Source: Comamonadaceae bacterium | GTDB lineage: Bacteria; Pseudomonadota; Gammaproteobacteria; Burkholderiales; Burkholderiaceae_C | Length of the DNA stretch: 40,716 nt | Assembly: GCA_947452785.1 (NCBI GenBank) | Contig: CANGDZ010000029.1 | Location: forward strand, 1-40,716 | Direction of reading: 5' to 3' | Shown here: positions 29,015 to 37,858 of the stretch, one piece after another | Layout of the letters: every line of letters starts with the position of its first letter | How positions within the stretch are numbered: position 1 is the stretch's first letter | Position numbers and translations under genes: made by a program | Notes under the pieces: generated by a model | Told to the model about the DNA's origin: nothing | Databases searched by the model: none | Seen by the model: the letters and a program-made list of their open reading frames with translations, nothing else

Positions 29015-30562
29015 ATGACATCCCCACTCCGGCACCTGGTATTGATCTTGGGCGATCAGCTCGACGAAGAAGCATCGGCGCTGCGCGATTTCGACCCCCA
29101 ACGTGACGCGATCTGGATGGCCGAAGTGGATGAAGAGTCCACGCATGTCACGTCCTCCAAACAGCGCACAACCGTGTTCTTGAGTGCGATGCGTCACTTC
29201 GCGGCACGCTTGAGGGCGCGAGGCTGGCCGGTGCTTTACACCGCCCTGGACGCAGCGAACAACGCGGGGACCTTGGCGGGTGAATTGGACAAGACCATAT
29301 TGCAGACGCAGCCCGCGCAGCTGGTGATGACAGCCCCTGGCGATTGGCGTGTGCTGCAAAGTTTGCGCGCCGTAGCGCGCCAACACGAACTGAACCTGGA
29401 GATTCGGGACGACACCCACTTCTTCAGCACGGTGCGGGAATTTACCGAACACGCTCAGGGACGCAAGCAACTGCGATTAGAATATTTTTACCGCGAGTTG
29501 CGCCACAAGACCGGCATCTTGATGGACGGCAAAAAACCTGTCGGCGATCAATGGAACTTTGACCAGGAGAATCGCGGCAGCTTTGGTAAGCAAGGCCCCG
29601 GCTTGCTGCCCCCGCCCAGCCGGTTTGCGCCGGACGCCATCACACAAGAAGTGATTGCGCTGGTCAATCAACGCTTTGCTCAGCATCCCGGCTCGGTGGC
29701 CACCTTTGGCTGGCCGGTGACGCGCGAGCAAGCGCTGGTCGCACTGTCGGAGTTCATCGCGCACAGGCTGCCCAGTTTTGGTCTGTACCAAGATGCGATG
29801 TGGGAAGGCGAGTTGTGGCTGTACCACTCGCACCTGTCCAGCGCCTTGAATTTAAAGCTACTCAACCCGCGCGAAGTGGTGGCGGCGGCAGAAGACGCTT
29901 TTCGCACAGGTCACGCGCCGCTCCAGGCGGTCGAGGGTTTTGTGCGCCAACTTTTGGGCTGGCGTGAATATGTGCGCGGCATCTACTGGACGCACATGCC
30001 TGAGTACGCGCAGCGCAATGAACAAGAGGCCCACGCGCCCTTGCCCGCGTTTTACTGGACGGGGCAAACAGACATGGCCTGCCTGCGAGACGCCATCCAG
30101 CAAACCTTGGCGCACGGCTATGCGCATCACATTCAACGCCTGATGGTGACCGGCCTTTACGCCCTGCTGCTGGGCGTCGAGCCCAAAGCCGTGCACGAGT
30201 GGTACCTAGGTGTGTATGTGGACGCGGTGGAGTGGGTTGAGTTGCCCAACACGCTGGGCATGAGCCAATTTGCCGACAGCGGCATGATGGCCAGCAAGCC
30301 CTATATCGCCAGTGGCAAATACATCGACCGCATGAGTAACCACTGCAAAGGCTGCAGATTCAACCCGGCACTGTCCACCGGCACATCGGCCTGCCCCTTT
30401 ACCACCCTGTATTGGGACTACATGAACCAGCACGCCGACATGCTGGCCAAAAACCCGCGCATGCTGATGCAACTGAAAAACCTCAACAGGCTGACCACAG
30501 AGCAACGTGAGGCCATTGCGGTGCAAGCGCAGGCACACCGAAAACAACAAGAAGGTTGTTGA
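29015..30562 (+). CDS. FeS bacterial cryptochrome/(6-4) photolyase (PhrB type)
   Basis: A 515-aa FAD protein of the FeS-BCP family, whose Agrobacterium member PhrB repairs (6-4) photoproducts. The start LRHLVLILGDQL is the family N-terminus. The four [4Fe-4S] ligands are C356, C444, C447 and C460; the gaps of 88, 3 and 13 equal those I recall for PhrB (350, 438, 441, 454). It lies 11 bp after the other photolyase gene. Its TGA (30560-30562) is inside the TTGACATCC end of an IS200/IS605-type relic, so the last residues may come from the insertion. Confidence 0.95.
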   Translation: MTSPLRHLVLILGDQLDEEASALRDFDPQRDAIWMAEVDEESTHVTSSKQRTTVFLSAMRHFAARLRARGWPVLYTALDAANNAGTLAGELDKTILQTQPAQLVMTAPGDWRVLQSLRAVARQHELNLEIRDDTHFFSTVREFTEHAQGRKQLRLEYFYRELRHKTGILMDGKKPVGDQWNFDQENRGSFGKQGPGLLPPPSRFAPDAITQEVIALVNQRFAQHPGSVATFGWPVTREQALVALSEFIAHRLPSFGLYQDAMWEGELWLYHSHLSSALNLKLLNPREVVAAAEDAFRTGHAPLQAVEGFVRQLLGWREYVRGIYWTHMPEYAQRNEQEAHAPLPAFYWTGQTDMACLRDAIQQTLAHGYAHHIQRLMVTGLYALLLGVEPKAVHEWYLGVYVDAVEWVELPNTLGMSQFADSGMMASKPYIASGKYIDRMSNHCKGCRFNPALSTGTSACPFTTLYWDYMNQHADMLAKNPRMLMQLKNLNRLTTEQREAIAVQAQAHRKQQEGC

Positions 30563-30943
30563 CATCCTCCCCCACCTTGGCCTACGGCCACCGCTTGCGC
30601 GGGAAGGAGGTGGATTCCTACGGCGCTACGCATGAGAAACCTCGTGCATAGTCGCTTCGGTGGGTTCCTGCTTCACTGAGGCTGGTTTCGCCGTGGTCTT
30701 GCGACCCCGGCCACAGCCGTCCTCTCCACAGGCTAACAAGCGCTGTCCGCGCTCTAAAACATTGATCGCGCCGACGACATCGGCATTTTCGCCATAGCCA
30801 CAATCGACGCAAAGAAACTTGGCTTGTGTTTGTCGATTCTCTTTCGCAAGGTGGCCACAACATGGGCATGTCTGACTGGTGTGATGCGCCGGGACCGCCA
30901 GCAAGATACCGCCGCTCCATGCCATTTTGAAGTTGAGGGACAA
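30559..30943 (-). mobile_element. IS200/IS605-type tnpB 3' fragment with right end
   Basis: On the minus strand, 30943-30626 encodes 105 residues matching the TnpB C-terminus: LNFKMAWSGG, the zinc finger CPCCG ... CVDCG, and YGENADVVGAINVLERG, followed by a lineage-specific tail. The N-terminal three quarters are missing. The 3' side has long foldbacks (30570-30615) and ends in GGATGTCAA, like the relic at 21606. The region to the right (30944-31050) has no gene; it holds three AGGAACT-type direct copies and one inverted copy (30967-31019). Confidence 0.85.
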
Positions 30944-31050
30944 CGCTGCTATTTCAGTAAATCAACGAGGAACTGATAAGGAACTGATCAAGGAACTTTG
31001 GCGATATCTCCAGTTCCTTATTTCCAGATCTCATGCATGCATCTCCAGTT

Positions 31051-31189
31051 GTTTGAAATATTTCGAGAAATTCACTCTAGAATGTTGTTTTAGTGAAATA
31101 TTTCAAACACCCAAGCTAAGGACCTCTTGCCTTTGTTTGAAATATTTGCGATAGTTCATCTCAAATGCGCGTTTCTGAAAATATTTCAA
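31051..31189 (+). promoter_or_regulatory. Four-copy palindromic operator array of the first AbiEi gene
   Basis: The self-complementary GAAATATTTC core recurs as GTTTGAAATATTTC (31051-31064), GAAATATTTCAAAC (31095-31108), GTTTGAAATATTTG (31135-31148) and GAAAATATTTCAA (31177-31189, inside the gene start). The gene starts at 31165. TTGCCT (31128-31133) with ATAGTT downstream could be the promoter. AbiEi antitoxins are known to repress their own promoter through inverted repeats. Confidence 0.65.
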
Positions 31190-31905
31190 TCAAAGAGCTG
31201 CTGAGCAAGCTGGAGTGGGACACGCCATACGGTTCCCGCGACCTGCAGGCTCTGGGCTTACCTTCGACTGCTGCAGCCCGTTTGGCCCAGTCAGGCTGGC
31301 TCAAGAGATTGGGACGTGGCGTCTACCAAGTGCCAAACGCCAGGCTGGACATGAACAAGGCATTGGCTTACCTGTCACTCGAAGTTCCGGAATTGCACGT
31401 CGGGGGGAAAACCGCCCTGGCTTGGCGAGGGACACGCCACAACCTTGCACATCAAGAACGGTTGAACTTGTGGGGCCTCAAGGCGGGACGACTCCCTGCA
31501 TGGTTTACCGACCTGTTCAATGTCACCTACCAGTCAACCAGGATTTTTGACAACACCCTGCCCCAAGGGTTCGGTCTTGCACCACTCCCGGCAGGCAACC
31601 CGAAAGTGATGGTTTCCGTGCCGGAGAGAGCGTTACTCGAACTCTTCAGCGACACGGGCAAGCTTCAATCACTGGAAGAGACGTTGAACGTCGCTGAAAG
31701 CGTTCGGCACCTACGCCCTGATGTTCTTGAAACATTGTTGGCCCACACGACACGTGTAAAGGTAGTGCGGTTGGCCAAATCGTTGGCCAAGAGCCTTGAG
31801 CTGCCCTGGCTTGAGATTGCAAAGAAACACAGCGAGCGACTCGGAAGTTCAAGTCGTTGGGTTGCCGTGACCAGGGACAAGAAAATTCTTCATCTCAAAA
31901 AATGA
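31165..31905 (+). CDS. abiEi: AbiEi-family type IV antitoxin (first)
   Basis: A 246-aa protein with an N-terminal winged helix (SKLEWDTPYGSRDLQALGLPS, then GWLKRLGRGVYQVP) and the AbiEi C-terminal domain. Type IV antitoxins counter the nucleotidyltransferase toxin AbiEii without direct binding and repress their operon. The four operator copies upstream fit that role. The gene appears complete, but its toxin, which begins at the ATGA overlap 31902-31905, is cut after about 44 codons. Confidence 0.88.
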   Translation: MRVSENISIKELLSKLEWDTPYGSRDLQALGLPSTAAARLAQSGWLKRLGRGVYQVPNARLDMNKALAYLSLEVPELHVGGKTALAWRGTRHNLAHQERLNLWGLKAGRLPAWFTDLFNVTYQSTRIFDNTLPQGFGLAPLPAGNPKVMVSVPERALLELFSDTGKLQSLEETLNVAESVRHLRPDVLETLLAHTTRVKVVRLAKSLAKSLELPWLEIAKKHSERLGSSSRWVAVTRDKKILHLKK

Positions 31906-32051
31906 ACCCCACCTACGTACAAACGGTCAACCTGCTGTTGGACATCGCCCCCACAGTGTTTCAAACCCCTCGATTTGCAATGAAGGGAGGAACAGCACTG
32001 AACCTGTTCGTTCAGGACCTGCCACGACTGTCACGGCCGTTTTCAGGCTAG
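31902..32051 (+). pseudogene. abiEii: Truncated AbiEii toxin (5' fragment)
   Basis: Only the N-terminus of a nucleotidyltransferase toxin remains: MNPTYVQTVNLLLDIAP, then FAMKGGTALNLFVQDLPRLS, ending just where the catalytic DIDL motif should follow. The reading runs into unrelated sequence from about 32037 and stops at 32049-32051. The catalytic Asp residues are lost, so it cannot be active. The break lies directly before a 97-bp repeat. Confidence 0.85.
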
Positions 32052-32053
32052 CT

Positions 32054-32150
32054 ATCCCCAATTCGTAGGCAACGCACCAAATAAGAACAGACACTTCAAT
32101 GTGAGCAATTCCATCAATTTGCGGACGGCGGTTCAAATCCGCAAATCACC
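32054..32150 (+). repeat. Imperfect direct repeat, copy A
   Basis: A 97-bp unit that begins ATCCCCAATTCGT and ends AATCACC. Copy B is at 35685-35780 in the same orientation, about three quarters identical, with the best match at the ends (AATTTGCGGA-GGCGGTTCAAA). In this copy ATTTGCGG and CCGCAAAT form a perfect 8-bp inverted repeat. The two copies bracket the DUF6088 module, RloA/RloB and the IS3 relic. Confidence 0.75.
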
Positions 32151-32195
32151 CGTAAATCTACGTCCGCAGTCCAAGAATGCACTCAAATCAAGGGG

Positions 32196-32237
32196 GTGAC
32201 ACGTCGGGCAAGAAGCGCTAAAATGCATGAAATTTCA
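32196..32237 (+). promoter_or_regulatory. Promoter and operator of the DUF6088 gene
   Basis: GTGACA (32196-32201), a 17-bp spacer and TAAAAT (32219-32224) form a good promoter. The perfect 10-bp palindrome TGAAATTTCA (32228-32237) covers the expected start point and is likely the autoregulatory operator. The gene starts at 32252. Confidence 0.65.
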
Positions 32238-32251
32238 ATGAAAAAGCCTTC

Positions 32252-32863
32252 ATGTCAGCAGCCGCCACACTATTAACGCCTCCCCTAAAGGGTGCCACTG
32301 CGCACCTTGCGGGCGAACTGCAGGCAGGCCGTGTCTATCGGCGTGAAGATCTTGCTCGCCTAAGTAATGCAGTTGATCGGCATCTGCGCGAACTGGTGTC
32401 CACAGGCGTACTCAAAAAACTGGCTCAGGGGCTTTACTACGCACCCAAGCAATCGAACTTTGGTCCCTTGCTACCCACTGACGAACAGGTGGTGAGAGTG
32501 TTTCTGCGTGACAAGGACTTTTTGGTGTTTTCTCCGTCGTCATACAACACGGTGGGCCTAGGCACCACCCAGTTGTACAACAGCACACTGGTCTACAACC
32601 ACAAACGTCATGGCGTTTTCAAACTGGGCAACCGACAATTTGATTTCCGAGTGAAGCCACGCTTTCCCAAAAAACTGACGCCCGAATTCCTGTACGTAGA
32701 TCTGCTGAACAACTTAGGCGAATTGGCCGAAGACCATGACGCGGTGCTCAGCCAGGCCCGTAACAAGCTGATGTCTTTTAATCAACCCCGACTCCAAGCG
32801 GCATTAGGCAACTACGGCAACATGGCCACTCGCAAACAGGTTAGGAAGTGGATCGGCGGCTGA
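32252..32863 (+). CDS. DUF6088 protein, AbiEi-like antitoxin (second)
   Basis: A 203-aa protein with an N-terminal winged helix (GRVYRREDLARLSNAVDRHLRELVSTGVLKKL, wing GLYYAPK), then the AbiEi-like block VFSPSSYNTVGLGTTQLYN and RVKPRFPKKLTPEFLYVDLLNN. DUF6088 genes normally precede an AbiEii-type toxin. Here the gene is intact but only debris of the toxin follows. The promoter and a palindromic operator are well placed upstream. Confidence 0.85.
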   Translation: MSAAATLLTPPLKGATAHLAGELQAGRVYRREDLARLSNAVDRHLRELVSTGVLKKLAQGLYYAPKQSNFGPLLPTDEQVVRVFLRDKDFLVFSPSSYNTVGLGTTQLYNSTLVYNHKRHGVFKLGNRQFDFRVKPRFPKKLTPEFLYVDLLNNLGELAEDHDAVLSQARNKLMSFNQPRLQAALGNYGNMATRKQVRKWIGG

Positions 32864-32985
32864 ATTTCTTCACGAACGACGTGACTTCGATCAATAGATT
32901 GCGGTTGTCGAAAACGACCGTGCGCTCGCCCCCATGTTGGCCTATAGAGACTGCTGGATCACATGCGCGGCCTCTGGTGACTCCA
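32862..32985 (+). pseudogene. Decayed nucleotidyltransferase toxin after DUF6088
   Basis: In one frame the sequence reads EFLHERRDFDQ, a TAG stop, IAVVENDRALAPMLAYRDCWIT. I read this as the N-terminus of an AbiEii-type toxin of the FLHxRxDF...VEKDYWI kind. A stop codon interrupts it and the similarity ends near 32985, before any catalytic motif. The call rests on a short stretch and on its expected position after an AbiEi-like gene. Confidence 0.6.
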
Positions 32986-33015
32986 GGCATGCTATGAGCC
33001 AGAATGAAAATTCAC

Positions 33016-33044
33016 TTGAGTTTTTGCGTTTTTTACGCCAAAAT
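33016..33044 (+). promoter_or_regulatory. Promoter of rloA-rloB
   Basis: TTGAGT (33016-33021) and CAAAAT (33039-33044) are separated by 17 bp. The spacer holds TTGCGT and ACGCCAA around a T run, a near inverted repeat that could be an operator. GGAG (33063-33066) and the ATG at 33073 follow. Confidence 0.5.
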
Positions 33045-33072
33045 AGCTTTTATTTTTTTATTGGAGCAAAGA

Positions 33073-34344
33073 ATGCTGGTCGAATTTCGGGTTGCCAACT
33101 TCCGCTCAATCCGCGAGGAGCAGTGCCTGAGCTTCGCTGCATCGAACGATAAATCGCACGAAGACACCCACTGTCTGGAGACCGGTAGGCCAGGACTTTC
33201 TAGGCTCCTGCGATCGGCGGTGATCTATGGTGCCAATGCCAGCGGCAAGAGCAACATGATTTTTGCCTTGATGACGATGCAACAGCTCGTCCTCAACTCA
33301 ACGCGGTTGCTTGAGTCCCAATTCAGGGAGCAGTTCACACCCTTTCTGCTTGATAGCGATTCCCGCCAGGCACCAACCCAGTTCGAGATAACAGTTGTCA
33401 TCGGTGACCTGCGTTATCAGTACGGATTCAGTTTTGACGTCGATCGGATCCAAAGCGAATGGTTACTTGTATATGAGTCGAGTAAAGCCCAGCGATGGTT
33501 CGAATACCACTACAACCCAGAAACCCGTGAAAACGACTGGCAGCCGTTCTCGGTGCACTTCAAAGGCGAAAAGAAGGGGCAGCGAGAACTATGGAAGGCA
33601 AATACAAGTGCTCGTTCACTCTTTCTCACCCAGGCTTCGCAGTCCAACAGTCTTCAATTGCAGCCTCTCTTCAATTGGTTTGCCAATGACCTGATCGTTT
33701 TTCCTGCTCAAGCACCTTTTAACCTCATGCCCACGTTGCAGCGCTTGGATGAGCCACATTACAAAGAATGGGTTCTTCGCCTGATGAACGCTGCCGACAT
33801 TCACATCAGTGACATTCGGGTTGAAAAACGAAAAGGACCACAGATTGAATTCAGGCTGGAACCTGGCAAAAGCCCCGAATTTCAATCATTCGATGGCGAA
33901 ATGCCTGTCATTGAATTTGGACACAAAACCAGTGATGGGCAAGAACAGTGGTTTGATGCCCGGTTTGAGTCTTTTGGAACTCTACGACTGCTGGGTTACG
34001 CGGCACCGCTGCTCGATGCGCTTGAAAATGGGAAGCTCATCGTAGTTGACGAATTTGATACCAGCCTGCACCCACTTCTGACCCGCTACATCCTGCGAAT
34101 GTTGCACAGCCCATTGCTTTCGACGAAGGGTGCGCAGATGTGGATGACCACGCATGACACTTCTCTGCTAGATCCCCATCTTTTGCGGCGCGACCAGGTT
34201 TGGTTTGTCGAGAAAAAGAAGGACCAAAGCACAGAGCTATACGCGCTGATGGAATTCAGCCCACGGAAAAACGAAGCTATTGAGCGTGGCTACCTTCAGG
34301 GACGTTACGGCGCCATTCCATTCCTCAGCGACTTTCTTTTCTGA
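33073..34344 (+). CDS. rloA: AAA/ABC-type ATPase, RloA (AbiLi-like)
   Basis: A 423-aa ATPase of the Abi/OLD-like SMC group. MLVEFRVANFRSIREEQCLSF opens the family. Walker A is YGANASGKSN near residue 50, Walker B is KLIVVDEFDTSLHP, and the H-loop is MTTHDTSLLD. A linker region (about 130-260) lies between. Such ATPases paired with RloB are found in restriction and phage-defence clusters and match the AbiL pair. GGAG at 33063-33066 fixes the ATG at 33073 over the frame 23 codons longer. RloB follows after 9 bp. Confidence 0.9.
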   Translation: MLVEFRVANFRSIREEQCLSFAASNDKSHEDTHCLETGRPGLSRLLRSAVIYGANASGKSNMIFALMTMQQLVLNSTRLLESQFREQFTPFLLDSDSRQAPTQFEITVVIGDLRYQYGFSFDVDRIQSEWLLVYESSKAQRWFEYHYNPETRENDWQPFSVHFKGEKKGQRELWKANTSARSLFLTQASQSNSLQLQPLFNWFANDLIVFPAQAPFNLMPTLQRLDEPHYKEWVLRLMNAADIHISDIRVEKRKGPQIEFRLEPGKSPEFQSFDGEMPVIEFGHKTSDGQEQWFDARFESFGTLRLLGYAAPLLDALENGKLIVVDEFDTSLHPLLTRYILRMLHSPLLSTKGAQMWMTTHDTSLLDPHLLRRDQVWFVEKKKDQSTELYALMEFSPRKNEAIERGYLQGRYGAIPFLSDFLF

Positions 34345-34353
34345 GAGGCCGGT

Positions 34354-35025
34354 ATGCAGGAAAAAAATGCAAAACGCGGACGGCTAGCAAAGGAACGCGC
34401 AAAGGCAGAACGCAAGAAAGCCGGACGCCGCGAAACTGGTTCTGCCTTGTTGGTTTGCGAGGGAGAATGCACCGAACCCTATTATTTAAGGGGACTACTT
34501 CATCACTTTGGTATCAATAGCGCAAGCGTGGAGGTATTGCCCGGTCAATCAAACAGCAATGCAGTAGCCGTGGTCAACAGAGCTCGCGAACGCTTTGAAC
34601 AAGTTCCACGTGATCGTGTTTTTGTTCTGATCGATGCAGAGCAAGCCGATCTGGATCAGGCACTCAAAATATGCGAAACTCCATTGCAGCGAGGCAACCA
34701 GAAAAAGGCAATACCCGAGATTCGTATTGAGCCCATCATCAACACGCCCTGTTTCGAGGTGTGGCTGTTACTACATTTTCGCTACTGCGATCAACCGTTC
34801 AGAGTCTTCACTGACGTTCTGCCAGAACTGCGAGTTCACCTACCGGAATACTCCAAGGCGGATCGGGACATTTTTTCGAGAGTCGGCGGAGGAGAAGGTC
34901 TGCAGCGTGCACTGCTACACATCCCTCGACTTCGGACAGCTTCGGAAAATACCGGAGCCCGAAGTCCTGCTTCTGATATGGACGTTCTGGTTGAGGCTTT
35001 ACGAACCATCGCACCACAGAAATAG
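34354..35025 (+). CDS. rloB: RloB-family protein (Toprim-like effector)
   Basis: A 223-aa protein with a Lys/Arg-rich N-terminus, then LLVCEGECTEPYYL (the conserved Glu motif), VLIDAEQAD and PCFEVWLLLHF, all hallmarks of RloB. The arrangement resembles a Toprim-like nuclease fold, and RloB is taken as the effector of the RloA ATPase. In this pair both genes are intact and well spaced, in contrast to the broken toxin genes around them. GAGAGG precedes the ATG. Confidence 0.9.
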   Translation: MQEKNAKRGRLAKERAKAERKKAGRRETGSALLVCEGECTEPYYLRGLLHHFGINSASVEVLPGQSNSNAVAVVNRARERFEQVPRDRVFVLIDAEQADLDQALKICETPLQRGNQKKAIPEIRIEPIINTPCFEVWLLLHFRYCDQPFRVFTDVLPELRVHLPEYSKADRDIFSRVGGGEGLQRALLHIPRLRTASENTGARSPASDMDVLVEALRTIAPQK

Positions 35026-35084
35026 ATAGTTGCATTTGCAAGCGCTTGGGAATGTGCGACGGTTTCTGTGCATGTCATTGAAGT

Positions 35085-35522
35085 TGAAGTTGCCCCTTTA
35101 GTCCGGACAGATTATTGTTCTGTCAAAGGAGTTAAAGATGAGTCAAAGACGAGGGGCTTACGCGCCCGAATTTCGCCAACAAAATGGTTGAGTTGGTTCG
35201 CGTTGGACGCAAGACGAGCGAATTGGCACAGGAGTTTGGATGTCACGAAACCAGCATCAGCACCTGGGTTCGTCAGGCCAAAGCTGATGAGATGGGCGGC
35301 GCCAGGCTCGATACGCCGCTCACAACGGCTGAGCGCCAAGAGTTGGCTCAGTTGCTAAGGCAGTTGCGCCAAGTTACTCAGGAGCGCGACATCTTGGCAA
35401 AGGCTACGGCCTGGTTTGCCAACAAGGACAGCGCCATAGACAAGACATCTATGCGCTGATCCAGGCGAATCAGGCCGACCTTCCTATCCAAGCCATGTGC
35501 AATCACTTGCGTGTGTCCACCA
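35085..35522 (+). mobile_element. IS3-family insertion sequence remnant
   Basis: A left end resembling IS3-family tips (TGAAGTTGCCCC near 35085) is followed by AAGGAG and an ATG at 35138. orfA reads MSQRRGAYAPEFRQQ, loses one base in the A run near 35180, and continues as MVELVRVGRKTSELAQEFGCHETSISTW with a leucine-zipper tail to 35459. The first 30 codons of orfB (DIYALIQANQADLP ... RVSTS) overlap it, then similarity stops at about 35522. The DDE domain and right end are absent, so it cannot transpose. Confidence 0.85.
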
Positions 35523-35572
35523 GTCCGCAAGAACCCGCAGGAACCCGCGCAAACACGCGCTAGTAGGCAAAA

Positions 35573-35600
35573 AAAAGCCAACAGATTAAGGTTGGCTTTT
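35573..35600. terminator. Bidirectional hairpin beside the 24-bp repeat
   Basis: AAAAGCCAAC (35573-35582) and GTTGGCTTTT (35591-35600) form a 10-bp stem with an 8-nt loop, with an A run before it. It could terminate transcription on either strand. The right arm is part of the 24-bp repeat at 35590. The stretch 35523-35684 has no other supported feature. Confidence 0.55.
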
Positions 35601-35613
35601 AAGGTATTGGTGG
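35590..35613 (+). repeat. 24-bp perfect direct repeat, left copy
   Basis: The unit starts GGTTGGCTTTTAAGG and ends TATTGGTGG. It recurs without mismatch at 40318-40341, 4,728 bp away and in the same orientation. Direct copies of this kind can mark the ends of an inserted or recombined segment. Confidence 0.85.
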
Positions 35614-35684
35614 TGGTGGGGTGCAACCACGAAGCAAACAGCCTCAGAGTAGCCCCTGCGGGTCCCGTCTAGCTTCTGCCAACA

Positions 35685-35780
35685 ATCCCCAATTCGTTCG
35701 TTGTTCCCTAATGAGAACGGCCAGTTCAATGCGGTCAATTTTACAAATTTGCGGATGGCGGTTCAAACCCGTGAATCACC
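35685..35780 (+). repeat. Imperfect direct repeat, copy B
   Basis: The 96-bp partner of copy A (32054-32150), beginning ATCCCCAATTCGT and ending AATCACC. It stops 20 bp before the stop codon of the frameshifted minus-strand toxin. The internal 8-bp inverted repeat of copy A is degraded here. Confidence 0.75.
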
Positions 35781-35799
35781 TCCGTTTTCGACTGAGCCG

Positions 35800-36832
35800 C
35801 TATTGCCCGTCTCGAGCCGTGTCATTAACTTCATCTTGTATGGCCCGGCACTTCTCCATAATTTCATCAAACGATGGCTGATGAAGCGCCAGCAAGCCGT
35901 CCTCCAGCATCGCGGCGTAGTCGCTTTCCAGTGCGGCCAATGCTGCACCGGTGGGCACCAGCTGAAGTCCGCCGGTCACGGCTTTAAGGTAGTCGACCTT
36001 GAATCCACTGGCATCTTTCTCGGCGAAGAGGACCGACTTGTGTTCGGCCACCGCTCTGGCCAACTGGTGATCGTCTGCGGCCTGCGCAGCATGATCTGTT
36101 TTAGCCATAGCGGCCAAGTCGTACCAATGACGAGAATATCGCTCACCACGCAAGCGACCCTGCAAACTATAGACGTGTGCAGCCGTTGCCTTTTCCCAGA
36201 AGGTGCGCTCGGCAGCCATGACCAGAGGTGCCGCAACTGGGAATTTGACGCCCTCAATGACTTGGGCGATGTCGCAATGAACCATATGTCTGCTGTTCGG
36301 CTCGCCAGTGGCGCGGGCACCGAACTCCAACTGTATTGATGCCTCAGCATAGCCAGTGCCGGTTTTCACAGCACGATAGTCAATGATCAGTTTTTCGCGG
36401 TCCTTGCCATCAACTCGGAACTCGGCTTGCGCACTGCTGCTGATCAATGCATCTTCAAGAACCGGCTTGACCGAGCCTGCGATCCATTCCGGCAATCGTG
36501 CCCGAACGGCGCTTGTGATTTTCTTTTCCTGACTTGCCGAAACAGGAATCGGATTGCCGCCCTGCAACAAGTCTGGGACCAACATCCCGGATGTCGTAGG
36601 TCAGATCAATGTCTTCAGAAAACCGATCAATGATTTTGTAAACCTTGGAGAGCGATGTGCCGCCTTTAAAGGTCAATTTTTCGGCCAACTGTGAACCGTA
36701 GATGGCCGACAAGGCCCAGACTACCCAGATATCTTTTTCCAACAAATGTGCGGGTCGCCCAGTTCGGCCTGCCGCCACTTCAAGGGCTTCGGCCTGATCT
36801 GCGCGGCCGAGTGAGAACCATGACTCAGACAA
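35800..36832 (-). pseudogene. abiEii: Frameshifted AbiEii-type nucleotidyltransferase toxin (third)
   Basis: The N-terminal part (36832 to about 36587) reads LEKDIWVVWALSAIYG, LTFKGGTSLSKVYKIIDRFSEDIDLTYDIR with the catalytic motif. The rest continues in another frame as PDLLQGGNPIPVSASQEKK to SRHWYDLAAMA and the stop at 35800. A single extra G (C run 36586-36588 on the plus strand) explains the shift just after the DIDL motif. Without correction the toxin is about 80 residues and inactive. The start is probably TTG at 36832, overlapping the antitoxin stop. Confidence 0.85.
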
Positions 36833-37418
36833 AGGCCACCTCACTGACGGCACGTGCCATCCAACTTGGCATCGCAGCGCGAGCGGCGCGCATGGCCTCC
36901 CATTCGGCCGTGGACAACTTGGACTGCAGGATTTTGAGTGCCGAAGGGGCCTGCTCTGCCCCCAACCACGCCAAAGCACGAATGGCCATGCCCGCAGGGC
37001 GTTTGCCCATGAGCAACTGCCAAGGCGTGCCATGCTTGAACTCGACGTCCTGGTGGCCCAGGCGCAACTTGCGCGAAGGACCCGAGGTCAGAAAAACCTC
37101 CCGCACCGGCACCTGCGTCGTCAACCCGAGGGCATTCGCTTCAGCAGCGCCGCTGGGCACCACCATCTCACCACTGGCCGCCTCAATCGCCTCCACCACA
37201 GTTTGCGTGGACGGGGGACGCGCCCCAAACCGACCCTGCACCGGCAAGGCGTAGAAGCCACGGCCTACGCGCAAAATTTTTTCCTCACGCGTCAGGCGTG
37301 TCAGGGCCTGATCTACAGCGGCTCGCGAAGCTAGATGCAAAAACTCCTTAGGCGAAAGTAGACCGCCTTCAGGCAAGGCCTGAGCAGCAGCAAGGATGGA
37401 TTGGACAAGTTGGCTCAT
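36825..37418 (-). CDS. abiEi: AbiEi-family type IV antitoxin (third)
   Basis: A 197-aa protein with an N-terminal winged helix (LLSPKEFLHLASRAAVDQALTRLTREEKILRVGRGFYALP) and a C-terminal domain that includes VVPSGAAEANALGL, FLTSGPSRKLRLG and FKHGTPWQLL, as in AbiEi-like DUF6088-type antitoxins. It is complete, with its promoter and operator just upstream. Its toxin partner, overlapping at 36825-36832, is frameshifted. Confidence 0.88.
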   Translation of the reverse strand: MSQLVQSILAAAQALPEGGLLSPKEFLHLASRAAVDQALTRLTREEKILRVGRGFYALPVQGRFGARPPSTQTVVEAIEAASGEMVVPSGAAEANALGLTTQVPVREVFLTSGPSRKLRLGHQDVEFKHGTPWQLLMGKRPAGMAIRALAWLGAEQAPSALKILQSKLSTAEWEAMRAARAAMPSWMARAVSEVAFV

Positions 37419-37432
37419 ATGCAGGCTCTGTT

Positions 37433-37468
37433 TGTCAGAATTCTAAATTAGTTTCTGACATTTTGCAA
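37433..37468 (-). promoter_or_regulatory. Promoter and operator of the third AbiEi gene
   Basis: On the minus strand TTGCAA (37463-37468), a 17-bp spacer and TAGAAT (37440-37445) form a promoter. The inverted repeat TGTCAGAA (37433-37440) and TTCTGACA (37453-37460) straddles the -10, as expected for autorepression. The gene begins at 37418. Confidence 0.65.
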
Positions 37469-37594: not shown

Positions 37595-37858
37595 ATGCAA
37601 GTCATTCACTTGGGTCAAAAAGAGCTGGCTGAACGCTGGCGAATGAGTGAGGCGACATTGGAGCGCTGGCGCAGCGACCGCATTGGCCCTGTATTTCTAA
37701 AAATTCGGGGCCGTGTGCTCTATCGGCATGTCGATATCGAGGCGTTTGAAGTAGCAAGCCTGAAAGGCACCTTTGTTGAGCATTGCAACCCAGAGCCGCT
37801 GGCGTCGAGCAGTCCGAAATTAGCGTTAGCCCGCATCAATGGGCAATCGCTCCTCTAG
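37595..37858 (+). CDS. Small HTH (AlpA/excisionase-like) DNA-binding protein
   Basis: An 87-aa protein with a MerR/excisionase-type helix-turn-helix: KELAERWRMSEATLERWRSDRIGPVFLKIRGRVLYRHVDIEAFE (about residues 9-53), followed by an unstructured tail. It resembles AlpA-like regulators and excisionases carried by integrative elements, but no integrase is in the window. GGAGA at 37582-37586 fixes the start at 37595 over a reading 44 codons longer. It is divergent from the third AbiEi gene. Confidence 0.75.
   Translation: MQVIHLGQKELAERWRMSEATLERWRSDRIGPVFLKIRGRVLYRHVDIEAFEVASLKGTFVEHCNPEPLASSSPKLALARINGQSLL

What the first reader, a model, noticed from the sequence alone, without database searches (positions are those of the whole stretch)
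31165..37418. Three intact AbiEi-type antitoxins, three destroyed toxins
Seen: the toxin after AbiEi 1 is cut after about 44 codons; the one after DUF6088 is a 120-bp remnant with a stop; the one after AbiEi 3 carries a 1-bp insertion. All three antitoxin frames are open and have promoters with palindromic operators. Known: type IV antitoxins protect without binding the toxin. Inferred: selection kept the antitoxins, perhaps as anti-toxins against incoming AbiE systems or as repressors, while the toxins were purged. Three independent losses in 6 kb is unlikely to be random.
Basis: partly seen in the sequence, partly recalled or inferred. Interest (0 to 1): 0.75.

Follow-up and report, generated by a model that had tools for sequence, protein, structure and literature searches.

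The report
Orphan AbiE antitoxins, toxins lost
This bacterium keeps several intact antidote genes of the AbiE poison-antidote family although each matching poison gene is broken or missing, a pattern that recurs in its relatives and sometimes ends with the antidote fused to the harmless half of the poison.

Summary
The window carries three open AbiEi/DUF6088 antitoxins, each beside a broken AbiEii toxin: a 44-codon stub, a roughly 43-codon stub with an in-frame stop, and a gene split over two frames. A fourth such antitoxin lies on another contig of the same draft genome with no toxin after it; no intact AbiEii was found in the draft.
The losses are not three independent purges: stubs 1 and 2 end at module joins of a mosaic island, and loss 2 is ancestral (same junction in two other genomes). 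Elsewhere in the genus 12 of 39 scored loci have broken toxins. All 27 intact toxins have an open antitoxin; of 16 broken-toxin loci 13 do. Antitoxin 2 shows constraint after its loss (12 silent, 6 replacement changes; 6 and 5 on this genome's own branch). For the other orphans the evidence is absent or mixed, and three have decayed.
Best reading: ordinary orphan antitoxins on a mosaic defence island, probably useful against incoming AbiE modules. The most novel lead is in relatives: family-4 antitoxins fused in frame to the toxin's C-terminal half, without the catalytic core.

The parts
30626..30943 (-). relic of an IS605-type TnpB C-terminus (Cas12f1-like TNB domain); left border of the island
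   Evidence: Pfam PF07282 1.1e-15
30931..31020 (+). 90-bp scrap of the flank of an integrative-element cargo site
   Evidence: 89-91% identical beside family-3 modules in G013, G014, G069, G087; contiguous with AbiE1 in G027
31052..31190 (.). four TTTGAAATATTT-like repeats, probable operator of antitoxin 1
   Evidence: present with changes in 5 of 6 loci, deleted in G046
31165..31905 (+). antitoxin 1 (AbiEi_3 type)
31902..32033 (+). stub of toxin 1: 44 codons, cut between NTase motifs I and II (motifs placed by eye)
32054..32150 (+). partial copy of repeat D1, upstream flank of module 2
32228..32237 (.). core of operator-like site of antitoxin 2 (TGAAATTTCA)
   Evidence: aligned site present with small changes in 10 of 10 family-2 loci
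32252..32863 (+). antitoxin 2 (DUF6088/AbiEi type)
   Evidence: constrained after toxin loss
32861..32988 (+). stub of toxin 2 with an in-frame stop, ends before NTase motif I (placed by eye)
33073..34344 (+). AAA_21 ATPase (PADLOC AbiLi), intact, with its own conserved upstream stretch
   Evidence: Pfam 8.1e-31, PADLOC 1.5e-96, upstream alignment
34354..35025 (+). RloB-like protein (PADLOC AbiLii), intact
   Evidence: Pfam 5.4e-26, PADLOC 1.6e-19
35184..35459 (+). IS3-type orfA relic
   Evidence: NCBIfam 8.3e-11, below its curated cut-off
35611..35780 (+). repeat D1, longer copy
35800..36585 (-). toxin 3, C-terminal part in a second frame
   Evidence: AbiEii profile 43-237, 1.4e-22
36566..36829 (-). 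toxin 3, N-terminal part (inside ORF 36455-37033)
   Evidence: AbiEii profile 2-43, 1e-13
36825..37418 (-). antitoxin 3 (DUF6088/AbiEi type)
37433..37460 (.). TGTCAGAA-N12-TTCTGACA, probable operator of antitoxin 3
   Evidence: present with small changes in 12 of 12 loci
37595..37858 (+). small HTH_17 protein (called AlpA-like from recall), near cargo in relatives
   Evidence: Pfam 4.2e-6

Best explanation
The stretch 30.6-37.9 kb is a mosaic, partly decayed defence island built from AbiE modules and an AbiL-like AAA_21-RloB pair. The three AbiEii toxins were lost by truncation at module joins (1 and 2) and by a frame break that is recent or a sequencing error (3). A toxin cannot outlive its antitoxin, so loss in this order is the expected one. 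What remains are orphan, probably self-repressing AbiEi antitoxins. Shown: the genes, breaks, joins, conserved operator-like sites, and constraint on antitoxin 2 after its toxin was lost. Inferred: the orphans still neutralise intact AbiEii toxins of the same families brought in by integrative elements, so that a cell does not become addicted to such elements; this would be what keeps at least antitoxin 2.
For: Module and break anatomy. The block 32191-35077 is 97.2% identical in G048 with the same stub and stop; L157 has the same toxin-AAA junction. Homology to G027 ends at 32033, after which the D1-flanked module 2 follows. Same-genus loci with intact toxins of the same families: 3, 8, 6 and 10 for families 1-4. 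Family 1 (G027), family 3 (G013, G014, G069) and AAA-RloB (G021, G035) sit at one cargo spot of a shared element. Antitoxin 2, G000 against G048: 12 silent and 6 replacement changes, dN/dS 0.158, p=2e-4, within the range of toxin-paired family-2 pairs (0.09-0.25). Operator-like sites kept beside broken toxins. No AbiEii other than these fragments found in the draft genome.
Against: Neutralisation and DNA binding were not tested. On the G000 branch alone antitoxin 2 shows only 6 silent and 5 replacement changes (p=0.03). The G046-G088 family-1 pair has dN/dS 0.72. Three of 16 orphan antitoxins have decayed, six of 19 with partial hits. For antitoxins 1, 3 and 4 of G000 the changes after loss cannot be separated from those before it; stub 1 has no replacement change against G027, so that loss is recent. 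Antitoxin 2 may be kept because it rides with a selected AAA-RloB pair (dN/dS 0.02 each). Recombination in the cassette is likely.
Confidence: 0.55

Rival explanations
1. Neutral lag: the toxins went first because only that order is viable, and the antitoxins are relics that have not yet decayed; no present function.
For: G046-G088 family-1 antitoxins 7 silent/16 replacement, p=0.47 against neutrality and p=0.012 against the intact pair G081-G026. Decayed antitoxins in G046, G061:C17, G073 and in partial family-4 hits. Stub 1 has only 2 silent differences from G027, and the C-terminal frame of toxin 3 has no stop, so losses 1 and 3 are recent.
Against: Antitoxin 2 is constrained after its loss (12/6, p=2e-4); family-3 orphans G026-G088 8/2, p=6e-4, though their breaks differ. 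The relaxed look of G046-G088 is not specific to orphans: toxin-paired G026 has 4/3 or 4/5 on its own branch, and polarised against G026 the G088 branch is 6/6. Operator-like sites kept.
Confidence: 0.3
2. Antitoxin 2 was co-opted as regulator or antitoxin of the AAA_21-RloB pair that replaced its toxin.
For: Antitoxin 2, stub and AAA stay together in G000, G048 and L157 (in L157 RloB is cut short and the antitoxin runs off the contig). A TGAANNTTCA site like the antitoxin-2 core lies at 33005-33014 before the AAA gene. An AbiEi is described as a wider regulator in Mesorhizobium (PMC8436566, abstract read).
Against: The AAA gene has its own conserved upstream stretch, also in loci without antitoxin 2. 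None of the 8 other full-length homologues in the ORF lists (one with only 0.85 kb upstream) and none of 5 shows it. The second site is lost in L157, and two or more such sites arise in 16 of 100 shuffles.
Confidence: 0.1
3. Sequencing or assembly error, above all for the frame break in toxin 3.
For: Draft genome of 120 contigs; toxin 3 is otherwise open in both parts.
Against: Breaks 1 and 2 replace most of the gene by unrelated sequence; break 2 recurs in another assembly.
Confidence: 0.05

Closest known systems
AbiE type IV toxin-antitoxin systems (Dy et al. 2014, PMC3985639; passages read)
   Same: AbiEi antitoxins with winged-helix start, inverted repeats upstream, AbiEii nucleotidyltransferase fragments directly downstream
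   Different: no intact toxin was found in this draft genome for any of four antitoxins
Orphan antitoxins in Klebsiella and E. coli (PMC7192599, PMC10790755; passages read)
   Same: unpaired antitoxins, common in populations; anti-addiction or regulatory roles already proposed there
   Different: here each toxin remnant or gap and its intact relatives are identified, and constraint after loss was measured for one
AbiL (PADLOC AbiLi/AbiLii models)
   Same: AAA_21 ATPase followed by an RloB-like protein
   Different: preceded here by an AbiE antitoxin and a toxin stub

Membership tests
AbiE type IV toxin-antitoxin system | antitoxin gene followed by an AbiEii gene | tested here: not met
   three toxins broken, fourth absent; no other AbiEii found in the draft
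AbiE type IV toxin-antitoxin system | toxin with NTase motifs I-IV in one frame | tested here: not met
   stub 2 ends before motif I, stub 1 between I and II, toxin 3 lies in two frames (motifs placed by eye from PMC3985639)
AbiEi antitoxin | N-terminal AbiEi/winged-helix domain | tested here: met
   PADLOC AbiEi for all four; Pfam AbiEi_4 above cut-off for 1 and 3, below it for 2 and 4
AbiEi antitoxin | C-terminal antitoxin domain | tested here: inconclusive
AbiEi antitoxin | inverted repeats before the gene | tested here: met
   for antitoxins 1 and 3; a 10-bp palindrome core for 2; antitoxin 4 not examined; binding not tested
AbiEi antitoxin | autorepression and toxin neutralisation | not testable with these tools
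   needs experiments
AbiL | AbiLi and AbiLii genes in tandem | tested here: met
   1.5e-96 and 1.6e-19
AbiL | phage resistance | not testable with these tools
   needs experiments
Orphan antitoxin (as in PMC7192599) | antitoxin homologue without a partner toxin | tested here: met

The most novel reading that the evidence does not exclude
In this genus AbiE modules are not merely decaying but are repeatedly converted into toxin-free proteins that selection keeps. For the family of the fourth antitoxin the end product is a chimera: the whole antitoxin fused in frame to the toxin's C-terminal half, with the nucleotidyltransferase core (motifs I-II) deleted. It arose several times with different junctions and may work as an immunity protein or decoy against incoming AbiEii toxins.
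Probability: 0.4. Interest if true: 0.7.

Novelty: new variant of a known kind. Interest (0 to 1): 0.48.

Why it matters
Whether orphan antitoxins are relics or a kind of immunity against addictive mobile elements is an open question. Here the same families exist with intact toxins, broken toxins and, in one family, in-frame antitoxin-toxin chimeras, in species of one genus. The question can therefore be tested directly by evolution (constraint after a dated toxin loss) and by simple rescue assays in laboratory strains.

Tried and rejected
Structure of antitoxin 2: AlphaFold pLDDT 52.5, not used. Sequence search of solved structures with antitoxin 1 and with the antitoxin-2 profile: no match. 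Foldseek with the family-4 chimera: no match at E 0.001 or better; the VIA-align rows shown mostly cover the winged helix (residues 1-60) and say nothing about the toxin half. D1 as a known RNA: no Rfam family near threshold; the likeness of its end to a tRNA T-arm is from recall. D1 and the 90-bp scrap in plasmid records: none. Antitoxin 2 as dedicated regulator of AAA-RloB: weak, see rivals. Break positions: the eight breaks that I scored all fall in the first 27% of the toxin (KS p=5e-5), but the first of several lesions is biased to the 5' end and the set was chosen after the fact, so I give it no weight. Papers on AbiE antitoxin-toxin chimeras: none noticed in the listings; that is the whole basis for calling them undescribed.

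Rows dropped from the tallies: the G047 family-2 hit (contig edge); three partial same-genus family-2 hits (G013, G021, G029); all hits outside the genus; the 20 family-3 rows under 64% identity (some are family 4); three partial family-4 hits (G010, G024, second G021 copy), which are counted separately.
Full report
1. What is there. The window is the whole contig C29 of a 3.5-Mb, 120-contig draft genome. Three open antitoxins and three broken AbiEii toxins lie at 31165-37418 as described. Between modules 2 and 3 is an intact AAA_21-RloB pair that PADLOC calls AbiL. Around them are relics: a TnpB C-terminus, an IS3 orfA and a 90-bp scrap of an integrative-element flank.

2. How the toxins were lost. 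Similarity to G027, whose toxin 1 is intact, runs at 95.7% to 32033 and stops; from about 32049 the flank of module 2 follows. The stub has two silent differences and no replacement difference from G027. Toxin 2 ends at a junction to the AAA-RloB module. G048 has the same junction and the same stop in a 97.2% block; L157, from a MAG labelled Ferrovum, has the same junction with a better-preserved stub. There the antitoxin end is closer to the toxin-paired G074 than to G000 (14 against 30 differences in 225 bases), so recombination across the cassette is likely. Toxin 3 lies in two frames; its second part is open without a stop, so this break is recent or an error.

3. A fourth orphan. A family-4 antitoxin on contig C31 (270 aa; DUF6088 2e-8, PADLOC AbiEi 2e-24) has no toxin after it. 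Of 13 other full-length same-genus copies, 10 have an intact toxin (248-254 residues matched) directly after or overlapping the antitoxin end.

4. How common this is. Same-genus loci of the four families, contig-edge and partial hits left out: family 1, 3 intact and 3 broken; family 2, 8 and 3; family 3, 6 and 6; family 4, 10 and 4. In all, 27 intact and 16 broken. With an intact toxin 27 of 27 antitoxins are open; with a broken one 13 of 16 (p=0.045), or 13 of 19 counting three partial hits (p=0.003). Broken toxins are 4 of 4 in this genome against 12 of 39 elsewhere (p=0.015; 15 of 42 with partial hits, p=0.024), post hoc and not independent, since three share one island.

5. Selection (Nei-Gojobori counts by own script). 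Antitoxin 2, G000-G048, both after the loss: 12 silent, 6 replacement, dN/dS 0.158, p=2e-4. By branch, with G074 as outgroup: G000 6/5 (p=0.03), G048 6/1 (p=0.001). For comparison AAA 13/1 and RloB 27/2, both 0.02. Family 1, G046-G088, both broken in different ways: 7/16, dN/dS 0.72, not different from neutral and different from the intact pair G081-G026 (p=0.012). But G046 has lost its start, polarised against G026 the G088 branch is 6/6, and G026, with an intact toxin, has 4/3 or 4/5 on its own branch; so this signal is not clearly due to toxin loss. Family 3, G026-G088: 8/2, dN/dS 0.085, but their breaks differ. G000-G027 of family 1: 17/6, of which 8/3 lie on the G000 branch, with an unknown share after the loss.

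6. Operators. TGTCAGAAA-N-TTCTGACA before family 3 (12 of 12 loci), TGCATGAAA/TTCAATGA before family 2 (10 of 10) and TTTGAAATATTT repeats before family 1 (5 of 6) are kept, with small changes, whether the toxin is intact or not. AbiEi is known to repress its own operon through inverted repeats (PMC3985639, PMC7319586; passages read). Binding was not tested here.

7. Mosaic and mobility. AbiE family 1 (G027), family 3 (G013, G014, G069; G087 by its left flank only) and AAA-RloB (G021, G035) occupy one cargo spot of a shared integrative element (that the element is an ICE is inferred, not tested). Some part of the repeat D1 and its left flank matches in 31 of 149 genomes; in 14 of these a match covers most of the 170-bp core. 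It lies beside family-2 modules in G000, G074 and G047, and within 4 kb of the HTH_17 gene in G000, G048, G068, G087 and G014. In G015 it directly follows the gene that also borders the window's island (29015-30562, photolyase-like by recall).

9. Verdict. The window's own finding is a clear but ordinary case of orphan antitoxins, a known kind. Anti-addiction is the most likely function and is untested. The chimeras in relatives are what could be new; the searches listed nothing on them that I noticed.

Noticed in passing
G000 contig C31, 3384-4193 (-), locus L163: fourth AbiE antitoxin without a toxin in the same genome; a tandem repeat of about 25 bp follows it
   Followed up: partly
loci L173, L179, L181, L184; proteins P0121-P0146, P0153, P0177, P0215, P0230: antitoxin fused in frame to the C-terminal half of AbiEii, NTase core deleted, several junctions
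   Followed up: partly
window 35611-35780 and 32054-32150: D1, a repeat of about 170 bp; core matched in 14 of the 149 genomes searched (31 with any part), sometimes beside AbiE modules; no Rfam match
   Followed up: partly
window 30626-30943 (-): TnpB C-terminal relic with a sub-threshold RAGATH-18 RNA match at 30665-30732 (E 0.069)
   Followed up: no
loci L039, L051-L053, L046, L089, L090: one cargo spot of an integrative element holds AbiE1, AbiE3 or AAA-RloB in different species
   Followed up: partly
locus L157: MAG labelled Ferrovum carries the antitoxin2-stub-AAA cassette; RloB ends early there; possible binning error
   Followed up: no
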